DNA of 64,000 nucleotides from Hymenobacter aerophilus DSM 13606 (GTDB lineage Bacteria > Bacteroidota > Bacteroidia > Cytophagales > Hymenobacteraceae): assembly GCF_000382225.1 (NCBI RefSeq), contig NZ_KB907800.1, positions 248,001 to 312,000 of the forward strand, in the 5' to 3' direction. The position numbers and the translations under genes are program-made. The notes beneath the pieces were generated by a model that ran no database searches, was not told where the DNA came from, and saw nothing but the letters and a program-made list of their open reading frames with translations. How positions within the stretch are numbered: the first letter of the stretch is position 1; each line of letters begins with the position of its first letter. Positions 6,187 through 63,437 of the stretch are shown piece after piece.

Positions 6187-6297
6187 AAAATGGTGAAATG
6201 GTGAGCTTAATGTTCAATGGTCCTTTCTGCGCAAGCAGCGCAAGTAGGTACCGTCGAACATCAAACTCACCATTTCACCATCTCACCATTTCACTTC
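6187..6297. repeat. Nested palindromic element, arm class GGTGAAAT (first copy)
   Basis: The left arm (6187-6215) is a short tandem of an 8-mer like GGTGAAAT ending in ATGTTC. The right arm (6256-6297) is its reverse complement beginning GAACATCAAAC. The 40-base centre holds a small TGCGC/GCGCA stem. The same arms recur at 14604-14795. Confidence 0.8.
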
Positions 6298-6378
6298 TAA
6301 AGTCCCTAACTTGGCACCAAAGCGGCTACCGTCGCGTTCGGCCGTTTCCACCCGTTTCTACTTCTCTTCTGCTCCCGC

Positions 6379-6984
6379 ATGATTGCTTACGTTGACGGCA
6401 AGCTCGCCTACAAAGACCCCGCCCAGGCCATTCTCGACGTGGGTGGGCTAGGCTACGAAATCCGCATTTCGCTGGCCACTTATGCCAAGCTGCCGGCCGA
6501 GGAGGAGAAAATCAAGCTCTACACTTACCAGCACATCAAGGAAGACGGGCAGGCGCTCTACGGCTTCCTCGACCCCAACGAGAAGGCGCTGTTTATGCAG
6601 CTGATTTCGGTGTCGGGCATTGGGCCGGGCACGGGCATCGTGATGGTGTCGTCGATGTCGGTGGGCGAAATCCGGCAGGCCATTGTGAGCGAGGATGTGC
6701 GCGCCATCCAGAGCATCAAGGGCGTGGGGCCCAAAACGGCCCAGCGCGTGATTCTGGAGCTGAAAGACAAGCTGCGCAAAGACGAGCTGCTGGCCAAGGC
6801 CGGCATTGATACCGTGCCGCTGGCCAAGGCGCACAATACCAGCCGCGCCGAGGCGTTAGCCGCTTTAGTAACGCTGGGCTTCGCGCGGGCGGCGGCCGAG
6901 AAATCACTCGACCAGATTCAGCGCAAGCACGGCAACGACCTGACGGTGGAGGAATTGATTAAATTCGCTCTGAAGTCTAATTAG
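6379..6984 (+). CDS. ruvA: Holliday junction branch migration protein RuvA
   Basis: RuvA binds four-way junctions as a tetramer and loads the RuvB helicase. The 201-residue product has the expected order: OB-fold domain (about 1-62, starting 'MIAYVDGKLAYKDP'), tandem helix-hairpin-helix domain (about 65-140, with 'SVSGIGPGTG' and 'SIKGVGPKTAQR'), an acidic linker, and the RuvB-interacting C-terminal domain (about 153-201, 'RAEALAALVTLGF'). The ATG at 6379 gives the canonical N-terminus. The TAG stop codon overlaps the first bases of a palindromic repeat arm that separates ruvA from sprA. Confidence 0.97.
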   Translation: MIAYVDGKLAYKDPAQAILDVGGLGYEIRISLATYAKLPAEEEKIKLYTYQHIKEDGQALYGFLDPNEKALFMQLISVSGIGPGTGIVMVSSMSVGEIRQAIVSEDVRAIQSIKGVGPKTAQRVILELKDKLRKDELLAKAGIDTVPLAKAHNTSRAEALAALVTLGFARAAAEKSLDQIQRKHGNDLTVEELIKFALKSN

Positions 6985-7095
6985 GGCTTAGGGACTTAGG
7001 TGTTAGGGCGTAGTTACTGCTATCAGTTCAGGGCTGATGTTTCTGCCTCAACGGCCTGCCACCTATGCCCTAACACCTAAGTTCCTAAGCCCTAA
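6981..7095. repeat. Nested palindromic element, arm class TTAGGGN (first copy)
   Basis: The left arm (6981-7009) and the right arm (7067-7095) are 29-base inverted copies with one mismatch. Each is made of a degenerate 7-mer like TTAGGGC. The left arm contains the ruvA stop codon. A second copy of the same arms is at 53364-53630. Confidence 0.85.
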
Positions 7096-7113
7096 TACCT
7101 AGTATATCGACGC

Positions 7114-13100: not shown

Positions 13101-14607
13101 AGCCCCCAGTACGGGCCCCGAAACAGCCACGGCCGACTCGGCCAAAGGCCCCGAGCTGCGGGCGCTGAAGGCGGTGCTGCGCTCCTTGATGACGGCCCGC
13201 TCGCTCAACTTCACCTACGTGCGTTCCAACGGCACGCTGCTGCCTGGCTACCTGCCCCGCACGCGCTTCTTCGGGTTTGATAACGGCTTCGATGCGCCCG
13301 GCCTGCCCTTCATTCTGGGCCGTCAGCAGGACCTCGACGCGCTGTTTGGCAAGGCTTACAACAACGGCTGGTACACCGACCAGAGCCAGTACCTGAATGC
13401 CCCGCTCAGCTCCCTGCTCACCGAGGCCCTCACGCTGCGCACCACCCTGGAGCCCATCCGCGACTTCAACATCCAGCTCGATGCCCGCCGCAACCTCGTG
13501 CGCAGCCGCCAGGTGTTCTACCGCCGTTTGGTGAATGATGATTTCGTGGCCGACCCGAGCAACCCCACGCCCCGCCAGAGCAATCCGCTGGGCAACGGCA
13601 CGTTCAGCACCTCATTCATCGCCATCCAGACGGTATTCGGCGACCTAAGCGGCAAGGGCACGGTGTCGAAGGCTTTTCAGCGCTTCGTGCAGAACCGCGA
13701 GGTAGTGCAGCAGCGGCTGGAAGCGGCCAAGCGGATCCCGGATGGCACCTACGGCTACAACTCGCAGGATGTGCTGCTGCCCGCCTTCCTCGACGCCTAC
13801 AAAGGCAAATCGTCGGATGGCTACACGGCCAAGAAGTTCAAGCCCTTCGCCCAGCTGCCGCTGCCCAACTGGAACATCAGCTACAACGGCCTCTCCGAGC
13901 TGCCCTTCGTGCAGCGCTACTTCCGCTCGTTCCGCCTCAACCACGTGTACAGCTCCAGCTACAACATTGCCGGCTACAGCACCACGGTCGATTACCTGAA
14001 GGAGCCCGACGACCTTTCGACGGTGCTCAACCAGGCCGGCCGGTTCGTGCCTTACTACATTCTCGGGCAGGTAACCATTGCCGACCGGCTGGCCCCGCTT
14101 ATCGGGGTTGATTTCCAGACCACCGGCCGCCTCACCGGGCGCCTGGAGTACCGCGTCGACCGCACCATCGGCCTGAATTCGACGGTGGCCCAGGTAACGG
14201 AGCTGCGCCGCAACGACATCGTGATTGGAGCCGGCTTCGCCACCAACAAGTTCCGGCTGCCCTTCAAAATCGGGGGTGAGCAGCGGGTGCTGCGCAACGA
14301 GCTCAACGCCCGCCTCGACCTGAGCATCAGCGAGAACTACGCCATCCAGCGCACCATTCTCGACGTGGTAGACCCCATCGAAGCCGTTAAAACCGGCGGG
14401 CAGCCCAGCATCGGCCGGGCCTCCAGCCAGGTAACGGCCGGCACCCGCCAGGTGCAGCTGCGCCCCACCGTCGATTACGTGCTCAACCAGCGCCTGAACC
14501 TGCAGTTCTTCTTCACCCAGAACATCACCACGCCCAAAACCGGCAACGCCTTCAAAAACACCTCCACCGAAGCCGGAATTCAACTCCGCTACAGCCTCTC
14601 GCAATAG
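7114..14607 (+). CDS. sprA: Cell-surface protein SprA, outer-membrane translocon of the type IX secretion system
   Basis: SprA forms the very large outer-membrane barrel through which T9SS cargo is exported in Bacteroidota. The product has 2,497 residues, which fits the family. Residues 5-25 are a signal peptide. SprA-type motifs include 'SPLVLPLPDNV', 'DSLKNFDIREG', 'GDFQFDQNMNLNLSGQIG' near the N-terminus, many aromatic beta strands, and the C-terminal 'TSTEAGIQLRYSLSQ'. No ATG lies near the start; TTG at 7114 gives Lys-Lys followed by a hydrophobic core and is preferred over GTG at 7150. Neighbours ruvA upstream and gcvH and a vanZ-like gene downstream match the arrangement reported around sprA in flavobacteria. 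Two proteins in this window carry T9SS sorting domains and are probable cargo. The stop codon lies in the arm of a palindromic element. Confidence 0.96.
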   Translation: MTTGKKFSASAFVLLVSLVAWWSEASPLADGAVAPFALGQLWADWLPAGLRPDGKWGFALAAADTPRIDTTRYQPGTRPRVAPADRRGSRFSNQRRRSPLVLPLPDNVQLQVQPDDSLKNFDIREGIGSDLNFRDPSRMTFEEYSRWQQQKAVRDYFRERSGGSGGVAGDPNQPDNRRLIPKIYLGPMADRIFGGSYVDIRPQGAVTLRMGYRGNRNENPTLTLRQRKTGDFQFDQNMNLNLSGQIGQKLRLTFNYDTKAAFDFENNMKLDYTGFDTDIIRKVELGNVSLPLNNSLITGGQNLFGVKAQLQFGRLGITTIASTLRGQADEVRIQNGGQSRPFEIKASQYEKDRHYFLSQAFRERYDNSLRNLPTIQSGINITYLEVWVTNDNRQSDNLRNVVTLMDVAEPRRVYRQQFLNGANPNALADNAANSELSQIRALPNFRQELAIDDNLLSLGLAKNTDFEHVRARKLDPREYTYNAQLGYLSLNTQLLPEQVLGVSYQYIYNGKTYTVGEIQNDYSQVGTDQVIFLKMLKATNPAVGLADPTQNPLNENLLTRNLPTWDLMMKNIYPLNAQQLSRDRFELQIVYKDDATGVDLISLKEGQNIANKPLIEVFNLDNVNPNNDRNPDGNFDFFPGITVDTELGRIIFPEIEPFGSYLAGRFDTVASPTELQLARKYAYRELYNQVQSDAQQRQEKDKFYLRGRYQATSTDEINLPGIGVAEGSVRVRSGSTLLTEGTDYQVFYDQAKVKILNPAYLNSANELRVEFEKNALVQVQPRKLLGARFDYRVSSDMYFGATVLHLRENQAPGINRVNIGDEPGNNTIYGFDMNMRRESRALTRYLNALPFISTKEISTVSFSGEFAQLLPSQSKLGNKNSGGENGVSYLDDFENARTPYTLGGLNAAVAWRLGSTPQPLRNGVNNGLETAYSRAKLAWYTIDQTYYTNGQSKPGNIGAADLKNHYVRGIKRDEVFPNRNLGATGNSFETTFDLAYFPDQRGQYNYTPNFDRARPTFFADKTEQANADRHAAISREISFDTDFDNANVEYLEFWLMDPFLPGDNGLITDNDGHNTHNTSGGDLFVNLGSVSEDVLADNNQYEFENGIPVDGDPNSPDAVPTPWGRASRQPFLTDAFNPAAGARALQDVGLDGIADVAEQAIDPNYTGVPDPAGDNFRHHLDPSYDQANAKVLARYKDYNGMEGNSPEGSRLSSTAYPDKEDLNRDNVISEIERYYEYRMRLRPGKLEVGQNYIVDKVTNTNDDTNNEPVTWYQFRIPIRQYDRAVGTPGGQEFGFKSIRFLRVYLTGWEQPVVLRLVQPQFVANQWRRYLTKIAEPGGILNPDTDADEFSISTVSIEENGRVEQAGAGSIPYLLPPNIRRDREYGSSTTSRLQNEQSLRLVVGGLRDGFAKAAYKNLTVNMLRYKRLKLFLHAETQDRNLRDGQARGFVRLGTDYTQNYYEYSLPLELTPQPGATGTAYTVEQVWPEANRIDMSLQAFVDAKSARNKAGVNYNTPYVVQLPNGATITVVGNPDLSSVQGAMIGVLNPGDDGANLSLTLWADELRVAEFESESGWAATARFNTKLADIANITATGSYVTTGFGGLQDRPQQRSIDNILRGDVNATVAADKFFPEKLGLRVPVLLQAGIESRSPKYDPLDPDTRLEQSLEKFEDADERAAYRREVIDQTSQRSISLLNVRKERTNPEKKVQPWDVENLALSYSLTERKHTDIRTDRDYTRTYTGALAYVYQANPRNYTPLAKVKAFDSPYLALFKEVNFTPLPSRFSFRADLDRRYNERFLQRTLEPGQVPVTTGIPPVFQKIFYFSRIYDLRWDLTKALAFDYTATNRAVVDEGPGRTIGESQIARDNRQQIRDNLLRGGRTTNFNQTVALTYRLPLDKFPLTDWLSADARYAATYSWQAASTALRRPFNPGNPTDTTTVPLNLGNTIENNGELSANGKIDLVKLYNKVRFLNIINNAPPPGQQPTDPKTAKGGVAAAPSTGPETATADSAKGPELRALKAVLRSLMTARSLNFTYVRSNGTLLPGYLPRTRFFGFDNGFDAPGLPFILGRQQDLDALFGKAYNNGWYTDQSQYLNAPLSSLLTEALTLRTTLEPIRDFNIQLDARRNLVRSRQVFYRRLVNDDFVADPSNPTPRQSNPLGNGTFSTSFIAIQTVFGDLSGKGTVSKAFQRFVQNREVVQQRLEAAKRIPDGTYGYNSQDVLLPAFLDAYKGKSSDGYTAKKFKPFAQLPLPNWNISYNGLSELPFVQRYFRSFRLNHVYSSSYNIAGYSTTVDYLKEPDDLSTVLNQAGRFVPYYILGQVTIADRLAPLIGVDFQTTGRLTGRLEYRVDRTIGLNSTVAQVTELRRNDIVIGAGFATNKFRLPFKIGGEQRVLRNELNARLDLSISENYAIQRTILDVVDPIEAVKTGGQPSIGRASSQVTAGTRQVQLRPTVDYVLNQRLNLQFFFTQNITTPKTGNAFKNTSTEAGIQLRYSLSQ

Positions 14608-14795
14608 GTGAGATGGTGAGATGGTGAGGTGGTGAAATGGTGAGTTTGACGTGCTGTCATCCTGAGCGCAGCGAAGGACCTATACGGAAGCTGATATCAG
14701 ACTATAGCTTCCGTATAGGTCCTTCGCTGCGCTCAGGATGACAGGCCCCCCGAACATCAAACTCACCACCTCACCATTTCACCATCTCACCTATT
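14604..14795. repeat. Nested palindromic element: GGTGAGAT arms around a 39-bp hairpin
   Basis: The outer arms (about 14604-14646 and 14757-14795) are inverted tandem runs of GGTGAGAT/GGTGAAAT. Inside lies a perfect 39-bp inverted repeat (14654-14692 and 14706-14744) that begins CTGTCATCCTGAGC and ends at the loop with CGGAAGCT. The left arm contains the sprA stop codon. Confidence 0.93.
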
Positions 14796-14800
14796 ACCTG

Positions 14801-15670: not shown

Positions 15671-16989
15671 GCTTGTTATCAAATCGCACCCGCGCTTTTC
15701 CCTTGAGTTGCCTGACACGACTCGGGCTGCTGCTCGGGGGCGCACTGGCCGCAACTGCGCCGGCCGCGGCGCAGGATATGGCCCGGGTCCGGCAGGCGAT
15801 TACCCAACTGACGGCCCCCGAGCTGCACGGCCGCGGCTACGTACAGGGCGGCGAGCAGCGGGCCGCGGCCTACCTGCAGGGCCGCTTCCGCGCGCTGGGC
15901 CTGCAGCCCCTGGCCCCCGAATACTACCAGTTTTTCACGCTGCCCGTCAACACCTTTCCCGGCCGCGCCGAACTGCGCGCCGACAACCAGCCCCTACAGC
16001 CCGGCCTCGATTTCATTGCCGCCCCCGACTCGGGCCCCGGCAACGTACACGGCCCGGTATACCAACTCGATTCGCTGGTTTTCACCCAGTCCCAAGCCCG
16101 GCAGAAACTGCTGGCTACGCCGCTGGCCAAATCGGTGCTGGTGCTAACCCAGGCGCAGGCCAAGCGGCTGGCCGACCTGCCGCCCGCCGTGCAGGCCCAC
16201 CTGGCCACGGCCACCGCCCAACTCACGCTGATGCCCGGCAAGCTCACGGCCAGCGTGGCCGGCGAGCAGGCCCCGCGCCCCCGGCTGGAAGTGCGCGCCG
16301 CCGCCTGGCCCGCCTCCGCCCGCACTGTGCGCCTGCGCCTCGATGCCCGCCTGGAGCCCGCCTACCGCACTCAGAACGTGGTCGGCTACCTGCCCGGCAC
16401 CGCCCGCCCCGACTCGTTCGTGGTGGTGTCGGCCCACTACGACCACCTGGGCCGGCTGGGGCGCGACACCTACTTTCCGGGCGCCAACGACAACGCCAGC
16501 GGCGTGGCGATGCTGCTGGAGCTGGCCGCCTACTACGCCCAGCCTGAAAACCGCCCGGCCTACTCGGTGGCATTTCTGGCGTTCGGGGCCGAAGAAGCCG
16601 GGCTGGTCGGCTCGCGCTACTTTGTCGAGCACCCGCTCATTCCGCTGCCCGCCATTCGGGTGCTAACTAACCTCGACCTGCTGGGAACCGGCAGCGAGGG
16701 CCTGACGGTGGTGAACGGGCGGGTGTTTGAAAACCAGTTTGCCCGCCTGCAACGCCTGAATGCGGTGGGCGGCTACGTGCCGTCGCTGGCCGCCCGCGGC
16801 CGGGCCGCCAACTCCGACCACTTCCCCTTTTCGGAGCGCGGCGTGCCGGCCCTGTTCTTCTACACCCGCGGCGGCATCACGGCCTACCACGATGTCCTCG
16901 ACCGGCCCGAAACCCTTCCCCTCACCGCCTTCAGCGCCGTATTCGGGCTCCTGCGCGACTTTCTCAACGGCGCGGCTTCGGGGAAATGA
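15667..16989 (+). CDS. Secreted M28-family zinc aminopeptidase
   Basis: The product is a 440-residue exported peptidase with a signal peptide ending near residue 36 ('PAAAQD'). The M28 domain occupies about 230-435. Metal ligands are visible in order: His in 'VVSAHYDHLG', Asp in 'GANDNASGVAM', the Glu pair in 'GAEEAGLVGS', Asp in 'LTNLDLLGTG' and His in 'NSDHFPF'. The residues before the peptidase domain, which contain the inserted 'QPLAPEYYQFF' region, resemble the PA-like insert of secreted M28 enzymes. It overlaps the vanZ-like gene by four bases. The TGA stop is immediately followed by a repeat arm. Confidence 0.92.
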   Translation: MSLLSNRTRAFPLSCLTRLGLLLGGALAATAPAAAQDMARVRQAITQLTAPELHGRGYVQGGEQRAAAYLQGRFRALGLQPLAPEYYQFFTLPVNTFPGRAELRADNQPLQPGLDFIAAPDSGPGNVHGPVYQLDSLVFTQSQARQKLLATPLAKSVLVLTQAQAKRLADLPPAVQAHLATATAQLTLMPGKLTASVAGEQAPRPRLEVRAAAWPASARTVRLRLDARLEPAYRTQNVVGYLPGTARPDSFVVVSAHYDHLGRLGRDTYFPGANDNASGVAMLLELAAYYAQPENRPAYSVAFLAFGAEEAGLVGSRYFVEHPLIPLPAIRVLTNLDLLGTGSEGLTVVNGRVFENQFARLQRLNAVGGYVPSLAARGRAANSDHFPFSERGVPALFFYTRGGITAYHDVLDRPETLPLTAFSAVFGLLRDFLNGAASGK

Positions 16990-17180
16990 GAGGCGAGAAG
17001 TGAGAAGAACGTCATTCAGAGCATGTGGCGCATCAAGCCAGGGACGAAGAATCTCGCGTGAATCGTTGAACCGTCGCTGCAACATCAGCACGCGAGATTC
17101 TTCGTCCCTGGCTTGATGCGCCACATGCTCTGAATGACGTTCCTTTTCTCACTTCTCACTTCTAAAATCTCACCTCTCAC
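16986..17180. repeat. Nested palindromic element with a perfect 53-bp inverted repeat, GAGAAGT arms
   Basis: Arms made of GAGAAGT-like 7-mers (16989-17007, and the reverse complement at about 17146-17180) enclose a perfect 53-bp inverted repeat (17008-17060 and 17089-17141) that begins AACGTCATTCAGAGC. The loop is 28 bases. The stop codon of the M28 peptidase is at the outer edge. Confidence 0.93.
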
Positions 17181-17188
17181 TTCTCCCT

Positions 17189-31649: not shown

Positions 31650-31754
31650 CGCTCTACTTGTCATCCTGAGCGGAGCGAAGGACCTTATCACGTCGGAGCG
31701 AGTCGTTGGAGCGTGACAAGGTCCTTCGCTCCGCTCAGGATGACAAGTAGAGCG
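31650..31754. repeat. Palindromic element, core class GTCATCCTGAGC, no tandem arms
   Basis: A 43-base inverted repeat with one mismatch (31650-31692 and 31712-31754) containing TGTCATCCTGAGCGGAGCGA. It is closely related to the core at 53409-53515, sharing GGACCTTATCAC. It lies between the divergent genes mutS and the TrmH-type methyltransferase. Confidence 0.9.
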
Positions 31755-39469: not shown

Positions 39470-39639
39470 GCTCTTAGCTCTTAGCTCTTAGCTGTTAGCT
39501 GTTAGCTGTTAGCTGTTAGCTGTTAGCTGGAAAACGAAGAAGGCCCCGTACTCGGTTGAGTGCGGGGCCTTGTTTTTGGGCGAAAGCAGAGGTCTTTCTG
39601 AACGAAAGCTGATAGCTATAAGCTCTCAGCTAACAGCTC
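39470..39639. repeat. Nested palindromic element, arm class CTSTTAG (first copy), with a terminator as its core
   Basis: The left arm is eight tandem copies of a 7-mer (three CTCTTAG then five CTGTTAG, about 39471-39527). The right arm (39607-39639) is a shorter degenerate inverted copy. A related pair of arms is at 63321-63437. A terminator hairpin lies between the arms. Confidence 0.88.
39540..39578 (+). terminator. Terminator between the thioesterase and NYN genes
   Basis: Stem AAGGCCCCG / CGGGGCCTT followed by GTTTTT, lying inside the CTSTTAG element. Confidence 0.8.
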
Positions 39640-42038: not shown

Positions 42039-42126
42039 TGTCATCCTGAGCGCAGCGAAGGACCTATACAGAAGCTAACACCAGATAACAGCTTCTGTAT
42101 AGGTCCTTCGCAAGCTCAGGATGACA
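42039..42126. repeat. Palindromic element, core class GTCATCCTGAGC, no tandem arms
   Basis: Inverted arms 42039-42076 and 42090-42126, 37-38 bases with a small difference near GCGCAGCG/GCTTGCG. Loop-proximal CTATACAGAAGCT is almost the same as in the core at 14654-14744. Confidence 0.9.
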
Positions 42127-45500: not shown

Positions 45501-46144
45501 GCGCGGGCAACCTGCTGGGCGGCGAGCAGTCGGGCTTCATCAACGACCTGGGCTTCGAAACCTACCACCAGATTCTGGACGAGGCCGTGACCGAGCTCAA
45601 GGAAACCGAGTTCCGCGACCTGTTCCTCGGCGACCCCACCCAGCGCCTGCAGGAAGCCGCCAAAACGGCCGGCGTGCAGCAGTGCAATATCGAAACCGAC
45701 CTGCAGGTGCTGATTCCCGACGCCTACGTGAGCAACGTGTCGGAGCGGCTGCAACTCTACAGCAAGCTCGACCGCGCCAAAGGCCCCGAGCAGCTGCGCA
45801 AGCTGCTGGCCGGCATGACCGACCGCTTCGGCCCGCTACCGCCCGAAGTGGAGCAGCTGGCCGACATTGTACGCCTGCGCTGGCAGGGCCGCCACGCCGG
45901 CTTCGAGCGCCTGAGCTACAAGAAAAACGTGCTCAAGGGCTACATCCCGGCCGAAAACAACGAGGCCTACTTCCAGGGCGACACCTTCGGTAACATCCTC
46001 TCCTACGTGCAGACCCACCCCAACTCGGCCAGCATGAAGGAGCGCAAGCAGCAGCTCGTCTTCAGCATCAGCAACGTGCCCAGCGTGGCCGCCGCCAAGC
46101 GCCTGCTCAGCGAGCTAGGCAGCGAGGAGCCGGTGGGGGTGTAA
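42593..46144 (+). CDS. mfd: Transcription-repair coupling factor with in-frame palindromic insertion
   Basis: Mfd displaces stalled RNA polymerase and recruits UvrA. The 1,183-residue protein contains the UvrB-like N-terminal module, the RNA-polymerase-interacting domain ('DYVTHQDYGIARFAGL'), the SF2 translocase with Walker A 'GDVGFGKTEVAIRAA', DEEQ box 'LVIDEEQKFGV', 'SATPIPRTLHFSLMG' and 'HQMRGRVGRS', and the C-terminal TRCF domain. Residues about 134-173 are a Pro/Gly/Glu-rich insert ('PPTPSPGGEGE', 'PPSPPGEGGRGGEA') that interrupts the conserved run 'LMRAEVLNRLNSR' to 'LIVTYPEALFEKV' and is encoded by a palindrome. The start is uncertain: TTG at 42593 is the only candidate that keeps the N-terminus. 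It converges on the AT-rich GHKL gene. Confidence 0.93.
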   Translation: MQVSDFLKLYLLDPTVLTVGARLNPATRRTLGKAADKAEAPARLHLRGLVGSQDAVLAAALHHSYPQQPQLFILHDREEAAYFLADLQHLLPNEEPLLFPSSYKRPYAFDETENANVLMRAEVLNRLNSRTSVPHPPTPSPGGEGEPSDKKPVTTTGRQAPPSPPGEGGRGGEAPGPLIVTYPEALFEKVINKKSLVANTFIVKVGDRLDVNFISEMLAEYDFERSDFVYEAGQFAVRGGIVDIFSYANELPYRIELFGDEVETIRTFDPESQLSVDKKSQVSIIPNVQTKLLQETREAFLDFIPGDTAIWAKDLRQTLDVVTESFERAEADFQQLLAGAAGMQIVSKPEDLFESGKSFKKLLEGFAIAEFGKRFYFKSGEDFQFTSKPQPSFNKDFGRLVKNLHENQQAGYTNIIAAESVRQADRLRTIFDELDNNVQFQHLLLGLREGYIDDTLQLLVYTDHQLFERFYRAQEGRKFSKKKALTLKELRTLVPGDYVTHQDYGIARFAGLTQVEINDRMQEAIRLIYRDDDVLTVSIHALHKIAKYSGAEGTPPTMSKLGSPEWENKKKAVKKKVKDIAAELIRLYAKRKTAPGHAFAPDSFMQAELESSFIYEDTPDQGKATEDVKHDMEQPHPMDRLVCGDVGFGKTEVAIRAAFKSVADGKQVAVLVPTTILAMQHYKTFRERLANLPVTVEYVNRFKSTKQIKETLGRVAEGKTDILIGTHRLTNKDIKFKDLGLLVIDEEQKFGVKTKDKLKELKVNVDTLTLSATPIPRTLHFSLMGARDLSVIATPPPNRQPVQTELHVFDELLIRDAVAREIKRGGQVFFVHNRVKDIEELAGMIVRLVPDARVTYIHGQMEGDKLEKRMMKFVDGDYDVLVSTNLIESGLDIPNANTIIINRAHLFGLSDLHQMRGRVGRSNKKAYCYLLTPPVAGLPSDARKRLSTLEEFSDLGDGFKVAMRDLDIRGAGNLLGGEQSGFINDLGFETYHQILDEAVTELKETEFRDLFLGDPTQRLQEAAKTAGVQQCNIETDLQVLIPDAYVSNVSERLQLYSKLDRAKGPEQLRKLLAGMTDRFGPLPPEVEQLADIVRLRWQGRHAGFERLSYKKNVLKGYIPAENNEAYFQGDTFGNILSYVQTHPNSASMKERKQQLVFSISNVPSVAAAKRLLSELGSEEPVGV
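42992..43112. repeat. Palindromic element inserted in frame inside mfd
   Basis: Left arm 42992-43032 starts CCTCACCCCCCAACCCCC and itself contains a small hairpin; right arm 43069-43112 is its approximate reverse complement ending GGGGGGGTGAGG. The centre (43033-43068) is ordinary sequence. The element length keeps the reading frame and encodes about 40 residues. Confidence 0.92.
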
Positions 46145-46146
46145 TG

Positions 46147-46218
46147 AAAATAGGCGTATAAACGAGAGAAGGCAGCCCCCAAGCGGAGGCCGCCTTCTCT
46201 CGTTTATACGCCTATTTT
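46147..46218. terminator. Bidirectional terminator, perfect 27-bp stem that includes the end of the GHKL gene
   Basis: Arms 46147-46173 and 46192-46218 are perfect inverted copies (A4 T-rich ends) with an 18-base loop. The right arm contains the last codons and stop of the minus-strand GHKL gene (Lys-Ile-Gly-Val-stop). The left arm therefore mirrors them directly after the mfd stop codon. Confidence 0.88.
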
Positions 46219-48243
46219 TGTTAATTTATCTGTGACATTGCTAAAATCAATTTCAGGAAAATCCTCTTTTAACACAGCTGACACATCAACATCTTCTAAT
46301 TGTAGTTCGGTCGAAAGATAACTTAGCTTTCTTTTGTTTATTTCAATAATATCCTGCCATTCAACAACCCATATTTCAATATTTTTTCTTTCATTTTGAG
46401 AATAAAAATATGGCTTACCAACAGGCTTTGATATACCTTTTAATTTATAACTTGTCATATTGGAAATACTAGATGACACAAGAATAATTTTGTAATTTAT
46501 TTTTGGAAAGAAAGCCAATGTATCTATTTCATATGCATATCTTTCAGCTTGCAATAATTCTTTATTTGATATTTTTACTCCTGGAGCTTTCAATTCAACA
46601 ATAAGCACCTCTCTATTAGAAGCATCTAATATCTTTTCATTAAACAAAAAAAGATCAGTTATAGAGCGAATATCATTATCTTCTATATGAACAAAATTAT
46701 CATCTTCTTCACTCGGCGTGAATTTAAACAACTTATTTCTCAGAGCAGTTAAGTTATTTTTAAGACTTTTATCTGAAAGTAAACGGGTTGATGTATCGAC
46801 ATATTCCTCACCAAATATCCATAACATTTTCTCAACTACTTTATGCAATTGCGTTCTTTCTTTAACATATTTAGATGTTTTCGAGCTGACTAATGACTCT
46901 AAAAGCTCCAATTGATGCAGTCTTTTAGACACTCTATCGGAAAAATGTATAACCTCCTCTAAACCTGTTTTCTCTAATAGACAATTAAATTTTTCAACTG
47001 TTTCATCATCTAGTTTTAATATTTCACTAACAAGTGGCAAAGTTCCATCAGTAACAAGTGCCCTATTAATTAATGGAAATATTATCTCCCTCAAATCATT
47101 ATTCTCTTCTATTAACTTATACTTATTCTCAACTAAATATGCTAGTTTATCAAACATTACTCCTTGAGCGACAGAGGCAATGTCTTCAGAAGGGTAATAT
47201 TTATCTTCTTGTAGTCGAGTTGTGAACTTTTCAAAAGCTTCATTCTTTATCTTAAAAAATGAAGCAACTTCATTTCTAATAAATTTCTTCAAATCAGCTT
47301 TGTCAGTATCTATATCTGACAAATCCATATCTCTAAATATATTACCTTGAAAGAATTCAGCATTTACGTATACAATCCATGTACCTAGATCAGGGCTCAG
47401 CCAATCCGCATCAAATTTAAATCCATAAGAAACAGTTTGTATTCCAGCATTATCTACAGTTAAAAATACTTTTAGATCTGTTTTTTCACCTATTTTTAAT
47501 TTAGAATATGTGAAATACATTTCAAATTCATCTTTTTTATTATCAATATATTTTCTAACTATTCGTTCAGGCTCACCATCAATAAATAACTTTGGATCAA
47601 CTAATATATCATTTACATAAATATTTATTTCTTTGTTAAAAATTTTCAACATGTATTTTTCAAATAAAGAAATAAATATTTTTTCAAATGCAAAATCTAA
47701 TGACAATTTCTTTTTCTTATTTTCATTCACAGCAACAGAATCATATATATTATCTATTCTGACCTTGTAATAGGTGTTATTTGCAACATTATTAGCAAGA
47801 TATTCACTATCTATATCTAAATCTATATCCGAAACATTAGAATTTCCATCAAAATCATGCTCATTTAACACAAAACTTAATTTTGACTTGAATCCACTAT
47901 CTCTATCATATGCAAGAGATTCGATAGTAACTTTGGCACCAATTTGAAGAGCTGCAAATCGACCAATTCCTTTGCCACCTACTTTATTATTTGTACCTAT
48001 TTCCAGTAATTTGTTGTCTATATCAGAGACGGAAACCCCTATTCCATTATCAATCACTTCTATATTTGATATAAATGGACTAAAAATGTTATTAGAATCA
48101 CCATATTCTATATTTATGTGTATTTCTGTTGCTTCAGCTTGTATGCTGTTATTTATCAATTCAGAGAAAGCAACGAACGTGTCTCTGTATTGCGCAAATA
48201 TATCTTTTATTACACGCGAATTAGTTGAGAGTTTCTTTTTCAT
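46204..48243 (-). CDS. GHKL-type ATPase with C-terminal PD-(D/E)XK-like nuclease domain, AT-rich
   Basis: The 679-residue protein has an N-terminal GHKL (Hsp90/MutL/MORC-like) ATPase domain: N box 'FSELINNSIQAEATEI' (Glu 28, Asn 31/32), G1 'VIDNGIGVSVSD' (Asp 65), G2 'NKVGGKGIGRFAALQIG' (about 86-102). The middle is helical. Near the C-terminus, 'SITDLFLFNEK' (Asp 530), 'REVLIVELKAPG' (Glu 550, Lys 552) and 'LLQAERYAYEI' fit a PD-(D/E)XK nuclease core, which I infer from the pattern only. The gene is strikingly AT-rich (lines counted at 20-33% G+C against about 65% nearby), so it is probably acquired. ATG at 48243 is preferred because the GHKL N-terminus begins there. It stands alone. An antiphage role is plausible but unproven. 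Confidence 0.85.
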   Translation of the reverse strand: MKKKLSTNSRVIKDIFAQYRDTFVAFSELINNSIQAEATEIHINIEYGDSNNIFSPFISNIEVIDNGIGVSVSDIDNKLLEIGTNNKVGGKGIGRFAALQIGAKVTIESLAYDRDSGFKSKLSFVLNEHDFDGNSNVSDIDLDIDSEYLANNVANNTYYKVRIDNIYDSVAVNENKKKKLSLDFAFEKIFISLFEKYMLKIFNKEINIYVNDILVDPKLFIDGEPERIVRKYIDNKKDEFEMYFTYSKLKIGEKTDLKVFLTVDNAGIQTVSYGFKFDADWLSPDLGTWIVYVNAEFFQGNIFRDMDLSDIDTDKADLKKFIRNEVASFFKIKNEAFEKFTTRLQEDKYYPSEDIASVAQGVMFDKLAYLVENKYKLIEENNDLREIIFPLINRALVTDGTLPLVSEILKLDDETVEKFNCLLEKTGLEEVIHFSDRVSKRLHQLELLESLVSSKTSKYVKERTQLHKVVEKMLWIFGEEYVDTSTRLLSDKSLKNNLTALRNKLFKFTPSEEDDNFVHIEDNDIRSITDLFLFNEKILDASNREVLIVELKAPGVKISNKELLQAERYAYEIDTLAFFPKINYKIILVSSSISNMTSYKLKGISKPVGKPYFYSQNERKNIEIWVVEWQDIIEINKRKLSYLSTELQLEDVDVSAVLKEDFPEIDFSNVTDKLTKIGV

Positions 48244-48776: not shown

Positions 48777-49445
48777 ATGAACGATACCCAACGGGCGAAG
48801 CTGGCCATGCTGCAAGCCACTCTGGCCGTGCTCGACCAGCACGCCGCCCTCTACGCCACCAACCAGGCCCTCGGCAAAGCCCACGACGAGCTGGCCGCCC
48901 TCGTCGCGGCCCTCGACCCCACCGCCGACCGCCAGCGCAACGCCGTGACGCCCGCCCAGCCCGGTGCCGTGAAAAAGCAAACCAAGCAGCTGCTGGCCCG
49001 GCGCGCCGCCGAAGTTGCCGCCGCCCTGCTGGCCCTGGCCGACGAGCAGGACGACATCGGCCTGCACACCGACGCCGACTACACCGAAAAGCAGCTCCAG
49101 CGCCAACCCGACAACGACCTGCTGCGCATCGGGGCCAACCTGCACCGCCGCGCCACCGAGCACGCCCAGCCCCTGGCCCAGCAAAACGTAACGCCCCAGG
49201 AGCTCCAGGACCTGCAAGCCGCCCTCGACGCCTTCCGCCAGGAACTGACCACGCCCCGCACCGCCGTGGCCACCGGCAAGGCCCTCAAGCAGCAAATCAG
49301 CGCCGACTTGCGCCAGGCCAACAACCTGCTCCGCAACCGCCTCGATAAGTACCTGCTGCGCTACCAGCGCCCCCAGCCCGCCTTCTATACCGCCTACCAG
49401 TCGGCCCGCCAAACCATCAACACGGCCGCCCGCAGTGAGAAGTGA
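48777..49445 (+). CDS. Hypothetical helical protein
   Basis: The product is a 222-residue Ala/Gln/Leu-rich protein predicted to be almost all helix ('AKLAMLQATLAVLDQHAALY', 'LGKAHDELAALVAALDP', 'DLRQANNLLRNRLDKYLLRY'), compatible with four-helix or coiled-coil packing. There is no signal peptide. I do not recognise a family. ATG at 48777. The last residues 'RSEK' and the stop are encoded by the first unit of the GAGAAGT tandem array that follows. Confidence 0.78.
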   Translation: MNDTQRAKLAMLQATLAVLDQHAALYATNQALGKAHDELAALVAALDPTADRQRNAVTPAQPGAVKKQTKQLLARRAAEVAAALLALADEQDDIGLHTDADYTEKQLQRQPDNDLLRIGANLHRRATEHAQPLAQQNVTPQELQDLQAALDAFRQELTTPRTAVATGKALKQQISADLRQANNLLRNRLDKYLLRYQRPQPAFYTAYQSARQTINTAARSEK

Positions 49446-49617
49446 GAAGTGAGAAGTGAGAAGTGAGAAGTGAGAAGTGAGAAAAGGAACGTCATTCTGA
49501 GCGAAGCCGGCGGCGAAGTCGAAGAATCTCTACCGGAGTGGTAACCCTATCGGCCGCAACGAAGCGGTAGAGATTCTTCGACTGCGCCTCCGGCTTCGCT
49601 CAGAATGACGTTCCTTT
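49437..49617. repeat. Palindromic element with a GAGAAGT tandem arm (second copy)
   Basis: Six full copies plus a partial copy of GAGAAGT (49437-49483) lead into an inverted repeat (about 49483-49534 and 49565-49617) beginning AACGTCATTCTGAGCGAAGC, with a few mismatches in the middle of the stem. The arm class and the core class match the element at 16986-17180. No clear complementary tandem arm remains on the right. Confidence 0.9.
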
Positions 49618-49654
49618 TTCTTCCTTCCCCCCTGCTCCTACCTCTACCTCTCTC

Positions 49655-52207: not shown

Positions 52208-53374
52208 ATGGGTGTTCTGGAAGACTTACGGGCGCGTCGGCGGCAGATTGGCACGGCCGGCACCTCGGCCTTCGACGGGCAGCAGCCGGCCCTGCTGTTC
52301 ATTCCCGACATCAGCGGCTTCACGCGCTTCATCGAGCAGTCGGGCAGCCCGCAGGCGCCGTTTCTGGTGGCCGATCTGCTCGAAATCCTCATCGAGGCCA
52401 ACACCCTGGAGCTGCAGGTAAACGAGATTCAGGGCGACGCCGTGCTGTTTTACCGCCTCGGCCCGCCCCCCTCGGCCCAGCAGCTGATGCAGCAGTGCCG
52501 CCGCATTTACCTCGATTTCCAGAACTACCTGCTGCTGGTGGAGCAGGACACCGATTCGGAGCTGGCCGCCGCGCTGCGCGAGCTGGTGCTCACGCTGAAA
52601 ATCGTGGTGCACTACGGCCGCGTGAGCGTGGCCCGCATCCGGGAGCACACCAAGCTGATGGGCCACGACGTGATTGTGGTGCACCGGCTGCTGAAAAACA
52701 CCATTCCGGGCGCCGAGTACGTGCTGCTCTCGGAGGGCTACACCCGCACCCAGCCGCCGGCCGAGCTGGCCCGCGCCTTCGCCTGGACGCGCCTGCTGCC
52801 CGGCTCGACCCACTACGAGTACCTGGGCCACACACCCTACCACTACGCCTACCTCTCGCCGCTGCGCCTGCTGCTGAGCACCCCCTCGCAGCCCGGCGCC
52901 CCCGACGAGCCGCTGCCCGGCCGCGGCGGCCGCCTGAAGGTGCGCCGGCTGCTACCCGCATCGGCCGAGCGGGCCCTGCGCGTGGTGGGGGCGTTGCGGC
53001 TGCGCCACTGCTGGCTGGCCGGGGCCACCGCCAGCCACTTCGACGAGAGCAAGGCAGGCCGGCTGGGCACCAGCTACAAGGTAGACGTGCTCAATGGTCA
53101 GATCGACTTCCAGAACGTGCAGGTGCTGCGCGACGACGACGGCCGCTACACCTACGTGGAGAAGATTTCGCACTTCCGCCTCTTTCCCAACGCCCTGCTG
53201 TTCTTCCACCTCGAACCCGTGACGGCCCAGGCCTGCCTGCTCACGCTGGAGCTGCGCTACGGCCACGTAGCCAGTAACGTGCGCCTCATCCGCTTCGGCC
53301 AGCTGCGCCGCCTGCACCGCTGGCTGGCCCAGTCGGTGCGCCGGTTGGCAAGGCTGGTGGAGGTTAGGGCTTAG
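52208..53374 (+). CDS. DUF2652 protein: class III nucleotide-cyclase-like domain plus SRPBCC-like C-terminus
   Basis: The 388-residue protein's N-terminal domain (about 25-220) resembles class III adenylate/guanylate cyclases: 'LLFIPDISGFTRFIEQSG' holds the first metal-binding Asp (34) and 'NEIQGDAVLFY' the second (77), followed by 'LKIVVHYGRVSVARI' and 'LMGHDVIVVHRLLKNT' in the positions of the substrate-contacting strand. The canonical transition-state Asn is not obvious, so activity is open. The second half ('LRLRHCWLAGATASHFDE' onward) looks like an SRPBCC/START-type ligand pocket. ATG at 52208 is the first good start. It is convergent with an HD-Pycsar effector gene. Its stop codon is in a TTAGGGN repeat arm. 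Confidence 0.82.
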   Translation: MGVLEDLRARRRQIGTAGTSAFDGQQPALLFIPDISGFTRFIEQSGSPQAPFLVADLLEILIEANTLELQVNEIQGDAVLFYRLGPPPSAQQLMQQCRRIYLDFQNYLLLVEQDTDSELAAALRELVLTLKIVVHYGRVSVARIREHTKLMGHDVIVVHRLLKNTIPGAEYVLLSEGYTRTQPPAELARAFAWTRLLPGSTHYEYLGHTPYHYAYLSPLRLLLSTPSQPGAPDEPLPGRGGRLKVRRLLPASAERALRVVGALRLRHCWLAGATASHFDESKAGRLGTSYKVDVLNGQIDFQNVQVLRDDDGRYTYVEKISHFRLFPNALLFFHLEPVTAQACLLTLELRYGHVASNVRLIRFGQLRRLHRWLAQSVRRLARLVEVRA

Positions 53375-53630
53375 GGACTTAGGTATTAGGGTTTAGGGTT
53401 TAAATAAAGTGCTGTCATCCTGAGCGGAGCGAAGGACCTTATCACAGCAGAACGAGCCATTTTTGCGGCCGTTGAGGCGTAATAAGGTCCTTCGCTCCGC
53501 TCAGGATGACAGCACTTCACCTAGAGCAAATTGCGAGTCGGTGTACAGGCTGTAGAGACGCATATTTGCGTCTCTACAGCCTGTACAGTAAACTGAAAAC
53601 CGTTCTAATACCTAAGTCCCTAAGCCCTAA
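53364..53630. repeat. Nested palindromic element: TTAGGGN arms around two hairpins
   Basis: Outer arms 53364-53389 and 53605-53630 are a perfect 26-bp inverted repeat. Inside are a perfect 34-bp inverted repeat (53409-53442 and 53482-53515, GTGCTGTCATCCTGAGC class) and a perfect 21-bp hairpin (53542-53562 and 53567-53587, containing GTAGAGACGCA). The stop codon of the DUF2652 gene lies in the left arm. Confidence 0.95.
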
Positions 53631-61091: not shown

Positions 61092-61107
61092 GCAGCTCTA
61101 CACACAA

Positions 61108-61153
61108 AACAGGGCGGGCCGGCTATGCAGCTGCATAACCGGCCCGCCCTGTT
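61108..61153. terminator. Bidirectional terminator between the STAS-like gene and ppk1
   Basis: Perfect 15-bp stem AACAGGGCGGGCCGG / CCGGCCCGCCCTGTT with an inner palindrome TATGCAGCTGCATA, between convergent genes. Confidence 0.8.
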
Positions 61154-61173
61154 CAATCGGGTTTATTACGGCG

Positions 61174-63309
61174 CTACTCGGCGGCCTTTTTGCCGGCCGG
61201 AGCCGTGCGCTTGCGGGCCGGGCGGGCCAGGGCCGCGAGGTAGGCGTAGGTTTCAAACTGGGCCCGCACCTCGCCCTCGGCTGCGGCGGTGGCTTCGGCT
61301 GCCGGAATTTCGGTGGCCCCGACGAAGTTGTTCTGCCAGTCGCGCGACTTCACACTGTCGCGGCGCTGCAAATCGAGCAGGTCGCGCAACTCGGCCCGCA
61401 GGTCGTCCTGCAGAATGGGGAAGGCCACCTCTACGCGCCGGTTGAGGTTGCGGTTCATCCAGTCGGCTGAGGCCACGTACAGCTTCTCCTCGCCCCCGTT
61501 GCCGAACACGTACACCCGGGCGTGCTCCAGAAACCGGTCGACGATGCCGCGTTGCTGAATGTTGCTGCTCTGGCCCGGCAGGCCCGGAATCACGCACGAA
61601 ATGCCGCGCACCAGCAGCTCGACCCGCACGCCGGCCTCGGAGGCCTCGTAGAGCTTGCCAATCATGCGCTCATCCTGCAAAGCATTCAGCTTGAGAATGA
61701 TGTAGGCCTCCTTACCCTGCCGGGCCAGCGCAATTTCGTGGTCGACTAGGGCCGTGAGCTTGTCGCGTAGCTCGAACGGGGCCACCAGCAGGTGCTGAAA
61801 CTGGCCGGTTTTGTCGAGGTGGTCGTGGAAGTAGGTGAACACCTCCGCCACTTCGCGCGTCAACTCGGGGTGGGCCGTGAACAGGCCGTAATCGGCGTAC
61901 ACCTGGCTGGTTACTTCGTTGAAGTTGCCGGTGCTCAGGTAGGCGTACAGGCGGTTGTGGCCCTCTTCGGCTCGGGTGATGAGCAGCAGCTTGCTGTGGA
62001 CTTTCAGGCCCGGCATGCCATAGATGACGTTGGCGCCGGCTTTCTGCAGCTTCTCGGCCCAGAACATGTTGCTTTCCTCATCGAAGCGGGCTTTCAACTC
62101 GACCACTACCGTTACCTGCTTGCCGTTCTTGGCCGCCTTCAGCAGCGCTTTGGCCACGGCGCTCTTGCTACCCACGCGGTAAAGCGTAATGCTGATGTCG
62201 CTCACCTGCGGGTCACGGGCCGCCTCATTCAGCAGGCGCGTCACGTAGTCGAACGACTGGTAGGGCGGGTGCAGCAGGTGGTCGCGCCGGGCCATGGCGG
62301 CCAGCAGCGAGCCGGTGCGCGGCAGCGTGGGGTGCGGCAGCGGCGGCATGGGCTGGTACTGCAGGTGCGTCAGCCCGAAATCGGGGAAGCCGAAAAAGTC
62401 GCGGAAGTTGTGGTAGCGGCTGCCCTCCACCAGCTCCTCCTGACCGATGCCGGTTTTCTGGCCGATGGCCCGCAGCACCTCGGCGGGCATGGCCGGATCG
62501 TAGAGCAGGCGGGCCGGGAAGCCGGTGGCGCGCTTCTGCAGGCTGCTCTTGATTTTGGCCAGCAGGTTGTCCGACACTTCCTCGTCGATGTCGAGCTCGG
62601 CATCGCGCGAGAGCTTGAGCGCGTGCACCTGCACCCGGCCGTAGTTCGGGAACAGCTGGTCGGCGCAGCAGCGAATCACGTCGTCCAGGAACATCACGTA
62701 GTGCTCGTCGCCCACATCGGGCAGGCGCACAAACCGGCCGCCGTGACGCTTGGCGGGCAGTTCCATCACCACCACGCGCTCCTCGTCGTGCTTGTCGGCG
62801 TTGTGGGGCTGGGTCAGCAGGAAGGTCAGGTACACGCTCTGGTCGCGCAGAAACAGGTGGTGCAGGTTCTCATCGAGGATGATGGGCGAGAGTAAGTCGC
62901 GCACGTTGTCCTGGAAATACTGCTGCACCCAGGTACGCTGTTCGGCGGTCAGCTCGCGCTCCGAAATCAGGTGGATATGCTCGCGGCTCAGCTCGGGCAG
63001 AATATGGTTGCGAAACGTGTCGCCGAACGCCTGCTGCTGCCGGCCCACTTCGGCCAGCAATTCGTGCAGCTGCTCAGCGGGGTCTTCGGCCAGCTTGGCG
63101 CGGGTTTTCTTCTTGAGCTTAACGAGCCGGCGCAGCGTGGCCACCCGCACCTTGAAATACTCGTCGAGGTTGCTGCTGAAAATGGCCAGAAACTTGAGCC
63201 GCTCCAGCAAGGGCACGGCGGGGTCCTGGGCTTCCTGCAGTACCCGGCGGTTGAAGGTGAGCCAGCTGATTTCCCGGTTCAGCAGCTGCGGCGGGACGGT
63301 TTCGGACAT
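61174..63309 (-). CDS. ppk1: Polyphosphate kinase 1
   Basis: PPK1 polymerises the gamma-phosphate of ATP into polyphosphate. The 711-residue protein begins 'LLNREISWLTFNRRVLQEAQ' and contains 'FSSNLDEYFKVRVATLRR', the catalytic region 'PYQSFDYVTRLLNEAA', the autophosphorylated His in 'LKVHSKLLLITR', 'YLSTGNFNEVTSQVYADYG' and 'YVASADWMNRNLNRRVEVAF'. The C-terminal extension is Ala/Lys-rich. ATG at 63309. The gene upstream on the same strand is sixA. Confidence 0.97.
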   Translation of the reverse strand: MSETVPPQLLNREISWLTFNRRVLQEAQDPAVPLLERLKFLAIFSSNLDEYFKVRVATLRRLVKLKKKTRAKLAEDPAEQLHELLAEVGRQQQAFGDTFRNHILPELSREHIHLISERELTAEQRTWVQQYFQDNVRDLLSPIILDENLHHLFLRDQSVYLTFLLTQPHNADKHDEERVVVMELPAKRHGGRFVRLPDVGDEHYVMFLDDVIRCCADQLFPNYGRVQVHALKLSRDAELDIDEEVSDNLLAKIKSSLQKRATGFPARLLYDPAMPAEVLRAIGQKTGIGQEELVEGSRYHNFRDFFGFPDFGLTHLQYQPMPPLPHPTLPRTGSLLAAMARRDHLLHPPYQSFDYVTRLLNEAARDPQVSDISITLYRVGSKSAVAKALLKAAKNGKQVTVVVELKARFDEESNMFWAEKLQKAGANVIYGMPGLKVHSKLLLITRAEEGHNRLYAYLSTGNFNEVTSQVYADYGLFTAHPELTREVAEVFTYFHDHLDKTGQFQHLLVAPFELRDKLTALVDHEIALARQGKEAYIILKLNALQDERMIGKLYEASEAGVRVELLVRGISCVIPGLPGQSSNIQQRGIVDRFLEHARVYVFGNGGEEKLYVASADWMNRNLNRRVEVAFPILQDDLRAELRDLLDLQRRDSVKSRDWQNNFVGATEIPAAEATAAAEGEVRAQFETYAYLAALARPARKRTAPAGKKAAE

Positions 63310-63320
63310 TCTTTTGAGTT

Positions 63321-63437
63321 TATAGCCTTTGGCTGTTAGCTGTCAGCTTTTTTTGTGCTGGCGGCCTCCAGCAATTAGTAGCCGCATGTAGGGCGTTGAA
63401 CGGAAGCTGACAGCTACTAGCTATAAGCTGGCAGCTG
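63321..63437. repeat. Palindromic element, arm class CTGTTAG (second copy)
   Basis: Degenerate inverted arms (63321-63349, containing GGCTGTTAGCTGTCAGCTT, and 63404-63437, AAGCTGACAGCT onward) around a 54-base centre with a small GGCGGCC/GCCGC stem. Related to the element at 39470-39639. Confidence 0.75.

What the first reader, a model, noticed from the sequence alone, without database searches (positions are those of the whole stretch)
6187..63437. Modular family of nested palindromes: four tandem arm classes, each present twice, combined with exchangeable hairpin cores
Arms of period-7/8 repeats occur as inverted pairs in four classes: GGTGAGAT (6187, 14604), TTAGGGN (6981, 53364), CTSTTAG (39470, 63321) and GAGAAGT (16986, 49437). 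Cores of class GTCATCCTGAGC occur with GGTGAGAT arms (14654), with TTAGGGN arms (53409) and without arms (31650, 42039). The GTCATTC(T/A)GAGC core goes with GAGAAGT arms. Arms and cores are thus partly exchangeable, and nearly all elements lie just after stop codons. Simple REP elements do not show this two-layer structure. It suggests a mobile or templated mechanism acting at gene ends.
Basis: partly seen in the sequence, partly recalled or inferred. Interest (0 to 1): 0.72.

Follow-up and report, generated by a model that had tools for sequence, protein, structure and literature searches.

The report
Interchangeable nested palindromes at gene ends
In this Hymenobacter genome the ends of many genes carry long hairpin-forming repeats, sometimes one nested inside another; a related species usually keeps a hairpin at the same gene end, but often one of an unrelated kind, and the two sides of a hairpin tend to change together as if one were copied from the other.

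Summary
The window has 19 inverted repeats of score >=18; 40 dinucleotide shuffles have none. Two listed pairs are weak (39470, 63321) and the 49437 array lacks an opposite arm. Cores are CGTC/TGTC-tagged REP dimers, close to a described superfamily, present in 120 of 120 same-genus genomes searched. Arms are separate period-7/8 families: the GGTGARRT arm is in 64 of 120, copy number uncorrelated with the core (rho 0.02). Extra outer stems surround 10 of 55 REP dimers, against 0.9% of shuffled flank pairings. New: between two species gene-end sites stay occupied (odds ratio 15.6), yet only 16 of 40 co-occupied sites hold elements more alike than 95% of random pairings. Arms co-vary (13 complementary double changes, 0.90 expected, in 8 best orthologues), a few spacers are inverted, and mismatches show no G-U bias. 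This fits fold-back template switching plus nested insertion. No Y1 transposase is tied to the core: 37 of 120 genomes have no match. What spreads the elements is not shown.

The parts
6172..6307 (.). Palindrome with GGTGARRT (period 8) arms and its own loop, after the stop (6182) of a malic-enzyme-like gene; no REP core
   Evidence: relatives hold GGTGA arms, a REP dimer, or TTAGGG arms with a collapsed REP at this gap
6980..7096 (.). Palindrome with TTAGGGN (period 7) arms after ruvA; the arm overlaps the stop codon
   Evidence: GTTGTTA/GTTGTCA-type arms in G001, G034, G087
14603..14795 (.). Composite: GGTGARRT arms outside, REP-C dimer (14654-14744) inside, after the sprA stop
   Evidence: GGTGA-type arms without core in G058 and G053
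16986..17185 (.). Composite: GAGAAGT arms around a REP-T dimer with long REP loops (17007-17142)
31650..31754 (.). REP-C dimer with a 10-bp contiguous outer stem, divergent gap; G001 has a CCCCTCTCC palindrome here
36508..36583 (.). Long unlabelled palindrome between convergent genes, overlapping a stop codon
38555..38615 (.). AAGCNNC-like (period 7) arm palindrome; 9-nt apex inverted relative to G001
39469..39638 (.). AGCTGTT array (left) and degenerate inverted partner (right) around a GC-rich hairpin
   Evidence: score 14 (weak as palindrome)
42039..42126 (.). REP-C dimer without outer arms; G001 has a REP-G dimer
46142..46223 (.). Long unlabelled palindrome between the ends of the ORFs 42593-46144 (+) and 46204-48354 (-)
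49434..49618 (.). AGTGAGA array (left only) beside a REP-T dimer (49482-49618); in G001 the REP ends are conserved and the inner spacer differs
53364..53630 (.). Three-part composite: TTAGGGN arms enclosing a REP-C dimer (53407-53517) and a GTAGAGACGC palindrome (53542-53587)
   Evidence: G001 has TTAGGG arms with only a remnant TGTCATC
63313..63440 (.). Weak TTAGCTG-type inverted pair (73% complementary) between two minus-strand genes
   Evidence: not reached at score 14

Best explanation
These are two layers of separate dispersed palindromes that accumulate, nest and replace one another at gene ends. The inner layer is a REPIN-like dimer of CGTC/TGTC-tagged REPs. The outer layer is a set of palindromes whose arms are degenerate period-7/8 repeats, several of which, by reading, hold a stop codon in each unit. 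Composites arise when one palindrome lands in the loop of another; gain and loss of layers exchanges the class at a site that stays occupied. The two arms of an element are kept complementary at the DNA level, most likely by hairpin fold-back template switching during replication (the quasipalindrome mechanism), which copies one arm onto the other and occasionally inverts the spacer. Shown: independence of the core from one arm family, outer stems above chance, site persistence with class exchange in one genome pair, arm covariation, examples of collapse by deletion. Inferred: the template-switch mechanism, outward stem growth, the order of insertion, and that tolerance just after stop codons rather than a positive function sets the location. 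Unknown: what disperses cores and arms to new sites.
For: Independence: core in 120 of 120 same-genus genomes (1-881 copies), GGTGARRT arm in 64 of 120; Spearman 0.02, p 0.81. Nesting: outer-stem score >=12 in 10 of 55 REP dimers (5 set off from the core, 5 contiguous with the REP stem) against 0.9% of shuffled flank pairings; at the sprA site, arms without core in G058 and G053, arms with core in G000, other arms with core in G001. Site persistence: of 188 mapped gaps (of 218 of >=30 bp) both occupied 40, only G000 24, only G001 12, neither 112 (odds ratio 15.6, p 5e-14); it holds for gaps >=150 bp in both (26/12/9/55, p 6e-8) and in divergent gaps (5/1/0/27). Class exchange: 16 of 40 co-occupied pairs exceed the 95% level of non-orthologous pairings; by label 16 of 40 differ, 2 of those are the same element on alignment, leaving 14, 9 of them across families. 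Arm templating: 13 complementary double changes against 0.90 expected in the 8 best orthologues, 7 of them in three unlabelled palindromes and 6 in REP or tandem-arm elements; in the REP dimer at C1:67526 four bases changed together (G/C to A/T in both REPs) and nearly complementary 10-nt insertions appear in both arms; spacers 6 direct and 2 inverted, plus one 9-nt apex. In H. citatus composites (n=30 of 41 REP dimers in loci picked for the composite) the 12 nt next to the core match within an element (mean 0.75, median 0.92) but not between elements (mean 0.46). DNA level: arm mismatches in co-directional gaps are 66 G-T and 60 A-C on the sense strand, p 0.66. Arm homogenisation, spacer inversion and multi-base compensation by template switching are documented (abstracts of PMC8604942, and PMC8794818).
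Against: No replication intermediate or new event was observed; all is comparative. Arm covariation could also reflect replacement of a whole element by another copy, or selection on DNA cruciforms. Spacer inversions are few; the local score at C1:297482 (11.5) is above the 99% null (8.5) but below its maximum (13), and could be another REP dimer in the other orientation. In H. citatus several elements have poorly matching arms (down to 0.27 over 30 nt), the loci were selected by the arm-core pattern, and between-element identity also falls with distance (0.46 to 0.39; within 0.75 to 0.62), so outward decay is only suggestive. Class labels are regular expressions with misses. Gene calls are my own and missed the 716-aa ORF at 46204-48354. 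One genome pair was used for the occupancy table, and gene-end selection could contribute to persistence outside divergent gaps. The model does not explain how one arm class reaches many sites, nor the 7/8-bp period. Y1-bearing genomes have more cores (median 183 against 99, p 0.01, not corrected for phylogeny), so a past or indirect Y1 role is not excluded.
Confidence: 0.55

Rival explanations
1. Functional 3'-end hairpins: selection for a transcript-end structure (termination or protection from exonucleases) keeps a hairpin after each of these genes, and any dispersed palindrome can fill the role, so the class drifts while the site persists.
For: 63 of 73 co-directional elements lie nearer the stop, median 15 nt; 30 elements for 50 convergent gaps, 73 for 222 co-directional and 9 for 53 divergent (C1+C2); persistence of occupancy; by reading, plain GC-rich hairpins occupy the maeB-ruvA gap in several more distant relatives.
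Against: Occupancy also persists in divergent gaps (5/1/0/27). No G-U excess among mismatches. T5 tracts at the exit of the best stem in only 2 of 34 REP, 0 of 28 tandem-arm and 3 of 39 unlabelled elements in co-directional gaps; in convergent gaps, either side counted, 3 of 11 REP and 1 of 8 tandem-arm. So most are not ordinary intrinsic terminators.
Confidence: 0.25
2. Ordinary REPIN transposition by a Y1 (RAYT-like) enzyme acting on the CGTC cores; the arms are only bystanders.
For: Cores have the REPIN architecture and REP-internal covariation (102 of 103 paired); two Y1 genes of this genome are flanked by palindromes of their own; weak excess of cores in Y1-bearing genomes.
Against: No core repeat in the three Y1 loci; 37 of 120 genomes have no Y1_Tnp match and keep up to 671 cores; junctions between arm and core differ from element to element while often mirroring within one, unlike copies of one unit.
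Confidence: 0.12
3. Exchange by homologous recombination between strains carrying different alleles at the gap, the palindromes being passive intergenic filler.
For: Flanking genes stay orthologous and colinear while the gap content changes; some gaps group relatives in an order different from overall similarity, e.g. 31620.
Against: Does not account for outer stems above chance, for arm covariation, or for element-specific arms that mirror within one genome.
Confidence: 0.08

Closest known systems
CGTC-tagged REPs (Di Nocera, De Gregorio and Rocco 2013, PMC3733652; abstract, sections 6 and 15 and passages read)
   Same: Tag CGTC or TGTC (C or T before GTCAT in 81 of 84 cores), inverted dimers, location after genes, no flanking transposase; some REP dimers of that paper sit inside longer palindromes.
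   Different: Inner loop 3 nt in 61 of 84 and 14-21 nt in 16 of 84, against 4-5 nt as the rule in the paper; first A-T stem pair broken in 32 of 84; outer palindromes here belong to many tandem-repeat families that also occur without a core.
REPINs with RAYTs (Bertels and Rainey 2011, PMC3116915; passages read)
   Different: No RAYT linked to these cores; outer tandem arms; class exchange at conserved sites.
Small dispersed repeats in Nostoc, often embedded in tandem heptamers and nested (Elhai et al. 2008; recalled, paper not held)
   Same: As recalled: small hairpin repeats embedded in heptamer arrays, nested insertions.
   Different: As recalled, the heptamer arrays are not described as inverted arm pairs, nor exchange at orthologous sites.
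Quasipalindrome template-switch mutations (PMC7202029 seen in a listing; PMC8604942 and PMC8794818 abstracts read)
   Same: Arm homogenisation, multi-base compensatory change, spacer inversion.
   Different: Those works treat single mutational events in genes or RNA stems; here the signature appears in dispersed, nested intergenic palindromes.

Membership tests
CGTC-tagged REP superfamily (core) | CGTC tag, often changed to TGTC or CCTC, outside the stem | tested here: met
   Base before GTCAT: T 51, C 30, G 3 of 84 in the 452 kb sample
CGTC-tagged REP superfamily (core) | 8-9 bp stem with complementary AT at positions 1 and 2 | tested here: inconclusive
   Variable stem position paired in 102 of 103; base opposite the first stem A is T in 52 and C in 32 of 84, so the first pair is broken in 32
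CGTC-tagged REP superfamily (core) | Loop of 4-5 nt in most families | tested here: not met
   Loop 3 nt in 61, 2 nt in 5, 4 nt in 2 and 14-21 nt in 16 of 84, counting a tandem G-A as stem; the paper itself notes families with other loops, so I call it close to the superfamily, not a firm member
CGTC-tagged REP superfamily (core) | No transposase gene flanked by the repeats | tested here: met
   0 core repeats in the three Y1 loci; other transposase classes not examined
RAYT-mobilised REPIN | RAYT gene flanked by the same REP | tested here: not met
   37 of 120 genomes without a Y1_Tnp match
RAYT-mobilised REPIN | GTAG tetranucleotide at the REP base | tested here: not met
   Core begins C/TGTCAT; GTAG is seen in other palindromes of this genome
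Intrinsic transcription terminators | U tract at the stem exit | tested here: not met
   2 of 34 REP and 0 of 28 tandem-arm elements in co-directional gaps; 3 of 11 and 1 of 8 in convergent gaps
Template-switch (quasipalindrome) products | Complementary double changes beyond independence | tested here: met
   13 against 0.90 in 8 orthologues; 43 against 4.1 in 19 pairs, some of them replaced elements
Template-switch (quasipalindrome) products | Spacer inversion between relatives | tested here: inconclusive
   2 inverted and 6 direct of 8 with recognisable orientation, of 40 pairs; one further 9-nt apex
Small dispersed repeats in heptamer arrays (cyanobacteria) | Sequence or structural relation to SDR families | not testable with these tools
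   Paper not held

The most novel reading that the evidence does not exclude
Gene ends in Hymenobacter are held by a self-renewing population of palindromes: an existing hairpin makes its site a hotspot where new hairpins are captured or written by fold-back copying, so sites persist between species while their sequence class turns over, and the period-7/8, stop-rich arms are the product of that copying rather than inherited elements. A dedicated, undescribed machinery may drive it, since no Y1 transposase is linked to the cores.
Probability: 0.18. Interest if true: 0.82.

Novelty: new variant of a known kind. Interest (0 to 1): 0.55.

Why it matters
The 2013 survey of CGTC REPs found no dedicated transposase for them (PMC3733652, abstract). 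This genus offers a comparative system for that open question: the 120 genomes searched all carry such cores, 37 have no Y1_Tnp match, and one arm family varies independently of the core. If fold-back copying maintains these palindromes, it would tie a mutational mechanism studied at single loci to a genome-wide repeat population, and would warn that compensatory changes in intergenic hairpins need not mean RNA function.

Tried and rejected
Intrinsic terminators: not favoured as the main account, for lack of T tracts. RNA-level pairing selection: no G-T against A-C asymmetry in co-directional (66/60), convergent (20/31) or divergent (11/17) gaps. Known RNA families: Rfam at gathering thresholds finds only three tRNAs in the window. 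A shared apex motif GTTGAAC: in 14 of 115 elements, 17 of 81 occurrences in the sample; enriched but thin, not used. Whole-unit copying of arm plus core: looked at in H. citatus and H. profundi and not favoured. Literature: the searches listed no title or abstract start that describes this combination; most of those papers were seen as listings only, and the library lacks most subscription journals, so absence from print is not claimed.

Rows dropped: 12 of 76 C1 elements could not be placed in G001, and part of that output was cut; 30 of 218 gaps unmapped or rearranged; pairs below 0.60 identity left out (19 of 40 kept) and at or below 0.73 out (8 of 40 kept); REP dimers without a GTGA-type arm left out (30 of 41 kept); 1 of 30 ruvA loci incomplete. 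Outer arms farther than 70 nt from a core were not seen.
Full report
WHERE IT IS. The window is C1:248001-312000 of a 4.25 Mb genome in 62 contigs. Genes at its left include a malic-enzyme-like gene (3906-6182), ruvA (6379-6984) and sprA (7114-14607). I take the genus to be Hymenobacter. The closest relative, G001, has a contig of the same length (1,482,617) as NZ_FOHS01000001.1 of H. actinosclerus; that link is inference.

THE OBSERVATION. With a simple ungapped score the window has 19 inverted repeats of score 18 or more; 40 dinucleotide shuffles give none, best score 16. A 452 kb sample (the window, C1:1-248000 and C2:1-140000) gives 132 such repeats, merged into 115 elements, against 3 in a mirror control that counted one per centre. 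The listed coordinates hold with exceptions: 49437 has only a left array, 39470 and 63321 are weak as palindromes, and there are more classes than four. Where an arm is clearly tandem, the period is 7 (9 elements), 8 (11) or 9 (1) of 115, periods 5-12 having been allowed.

THE CORE. The pattern GTCATNCWGAGCN{2,9}CGAAGNAYCT is present 632 times in this genome and in 120 of 120 same-genus genomes, with no hit for the reversed control. Over the phylum it is patchy: 50 of 247 genomes drawn, own genus included. The variable base of the head pairs with that of the tail in 102 of 103 copies, with all four Watson-Crick types. The base before GTCAT is C or T in 81 of 84. This is close to the CGTC-tagged REPs of PMC3733652 (abstract, two sections and passages read), which also occur as inverted dimers near gene ends, lack a dedicated transposase, and in some species lie inside longer palindromes. 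The loops differ from the rule given there.

TRANSPOSASE. The genome has three Y1_Tnp matches. None has a core repeat in its 3.2-3.4 kb locus. One is flanked on both sides by palindromes of the GCCCCAGCGGGGC family, which contain GTAG; another by GTAGCGCGAA palindromes. These look like ordinary RAYT systems. Of 120 same-genus genomes 37 have no Y1_Tnp match at E<=0.001, and these hold 8 to 671 cores. Genomes with Y1 have more cores (median 183 against 99, p 0.01), a difference not corrected for phylogeny.

ARMS ARE SEPARATE. The GGTGARRT arm pattern is in 64 of 120 genomes and absent from the close relatives G003, G034, G087 and G114. Its copy number does not correlate with that of the core (Spearman 0.02, p 0.81). 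TTAGCTN arrays occur in 10 of 247 phylum genomes, from 9 of 121 genera, own included. REP dimers have a further outer stem more often than chance allows: 10 of 55 against 0.9% of shuffled flank pairings. Of the 10, five have arms set off from the core and five are contiguous with the REP stem.

POSITION. My own gene caller gives 254 and 117 genes on C1 and C2; it missed at least one long ORF in the window (46204-48354). Of the elements, 30 lie in convergent, 73 in co-directional and 9 in divergent gaps, and 2 inside called genes; gaps of 30 bp or more number 50, 222 and 53. In co-directional gaps 63 of 73 are nearer the stop codon (median 15 nt) and 10 nearer the start. In 17 elements of C1 and C2 the palindrome overlaps the stop codon by 3 nt or more. 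By reading, several arm classes hold a TAG, TGA or TAA per unit; the AAGCNNC class does not in this direction. PMC3733652 reports stop codons supplied by GTAG REPs.

EXCHANGE AT CONSERVED SITES. Against G001 (88% identical over 281 kb of alignments), 188 of 218 gaps could be mapped: both occupied 40, only G000 24, only G001 12, neither 112 (odds ratio 15.6, p 5e-14). The effect stays when both gaps are at least 150 bp (26/12/9/55), and the divergent gaps alone read 5/1/0/27. Yet only 16 of the 40 co-occupied pairs are more alike than 95% of non-orthologous pairings, and 8 more than 99%. By label 16 of 40 differ; two of those are the same element on alignment (C1:39349, C1:67526), which leaves 14. 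Nine cross families: C1:15530, 18539, 27817, 97613, 183857, 217550, 234777, 254980, 279650, of which 15530, 97613 and 234777 have an unlabelled palindrome on one side. Twelve share all labels, 4 share some, 8 are unlabelled in both. At the sprA gap the layers can be seen apart: GGTGA-type arms alone in G058 and G053, the same arm class with a REP-C dimer in G000, other arms with a REP-C dimer in G001, and a REP-T dimer with short new arms in G034. At a laxer threshold (score 13), 19 of 29 usable genomes, own included, have a palindrome in the maeB-ruvA gap, and 9 of 29 in ruvA-sprA.

HOW ARMS STAY ALIKE. In the 8 best orthologous pairs, 13 base pairs changed on both sides to another pair where 0.90 is expected; 7 of the 13 lie in three unlabelled palindromes, 6 in REP or tandem-arm elements. 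The wider set of 19 gives 43 against 4.1 but includes replaced elements. At C1:67526 the REP dimer changed four bases together and carries nearly complementary 10-nt insertions in both arms, with the outer left flank conserved and the adjoining spacer partly so. Spacer orientation is direct in 6 and inverted in 2 of 8 readable cases of 40; one of the two (C1:297482, score 11.5) lies below the null maximum of 13. One more 9-nt apex is inverted, at C1:286555. In H. citatus, 30 composites have element-specific arms: over the 12 nt next to the core the two sides agree (mean 0.75, median 0.92) while different elements do not (mean 0.46). Within-element means fall to 0.62 at 40 nt, between-element means to 0.39. 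H. profundi looks alike with 6. Several of the 30 agree poorly (down to 0.27 over 30 nt), and the loci were chosen by the arm-core pattern. Sense-strand mismatches are 66 G-T and 60 A-C in co-directional gaps, which speaks against RNA pairing as the main force. Homogenised arms and inverted spacers are recognised marks of template switching (abstracts of PMC8604942 and PMC8794818). Dimers also collapse: in G001 at C1:218936 one REP hairpin is left inside conserved outer arms.

CONCLUSION. The most likely account is a population of dispersed palindromes, of a core type close to a described one and of less described tandem-arm types, that nest in and replace one another at gene ends while fold-back copying keeps the arms complementary. 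What spreads them is not shown. The 3'-end function rival explains position but not divergent gaps or the lack of G-U bias. The finding is a new variant of a known kind rather than a new category.

Noticed in passing
L052:1080-2204 (C35 of the same genome): Y1 transposase gene flanked on both sides by GCCCCAGCGGGGC palindromes that contain GTAG; the motif has 18 hits in the 452 kb sample. Looks like an ordinary RAYT with its REPs.
   Followed up: partly
L053:1311-2228 (C9 of the same genome): A second Y1 gene (219-aa frame) flanked by GTAGCGCGAACTTTGTAGTTCGCG-type palindromes on both sides.
   Followed up: partly
   Followed up: partly
window 48522-48630: Tandem repeat of 21/42 bp (GAACCCATAACG..) before the gene at 48777, not related to the palindromes.
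   Followed up: no
window 42988-43116: CCCCTCTCC-type palindrome that falls inside a called gene (42593-46144); the gene start may lie further downstream.
   Followed up: no
G001 near 207032 of the joined stretch, orthologous to C1:200530: In G001 the loop of a CACGGATT palindrome holds several tandem copies of CAGCCCGTCTACAAAATCCG, a one-sided expansion.
   Followed up: no
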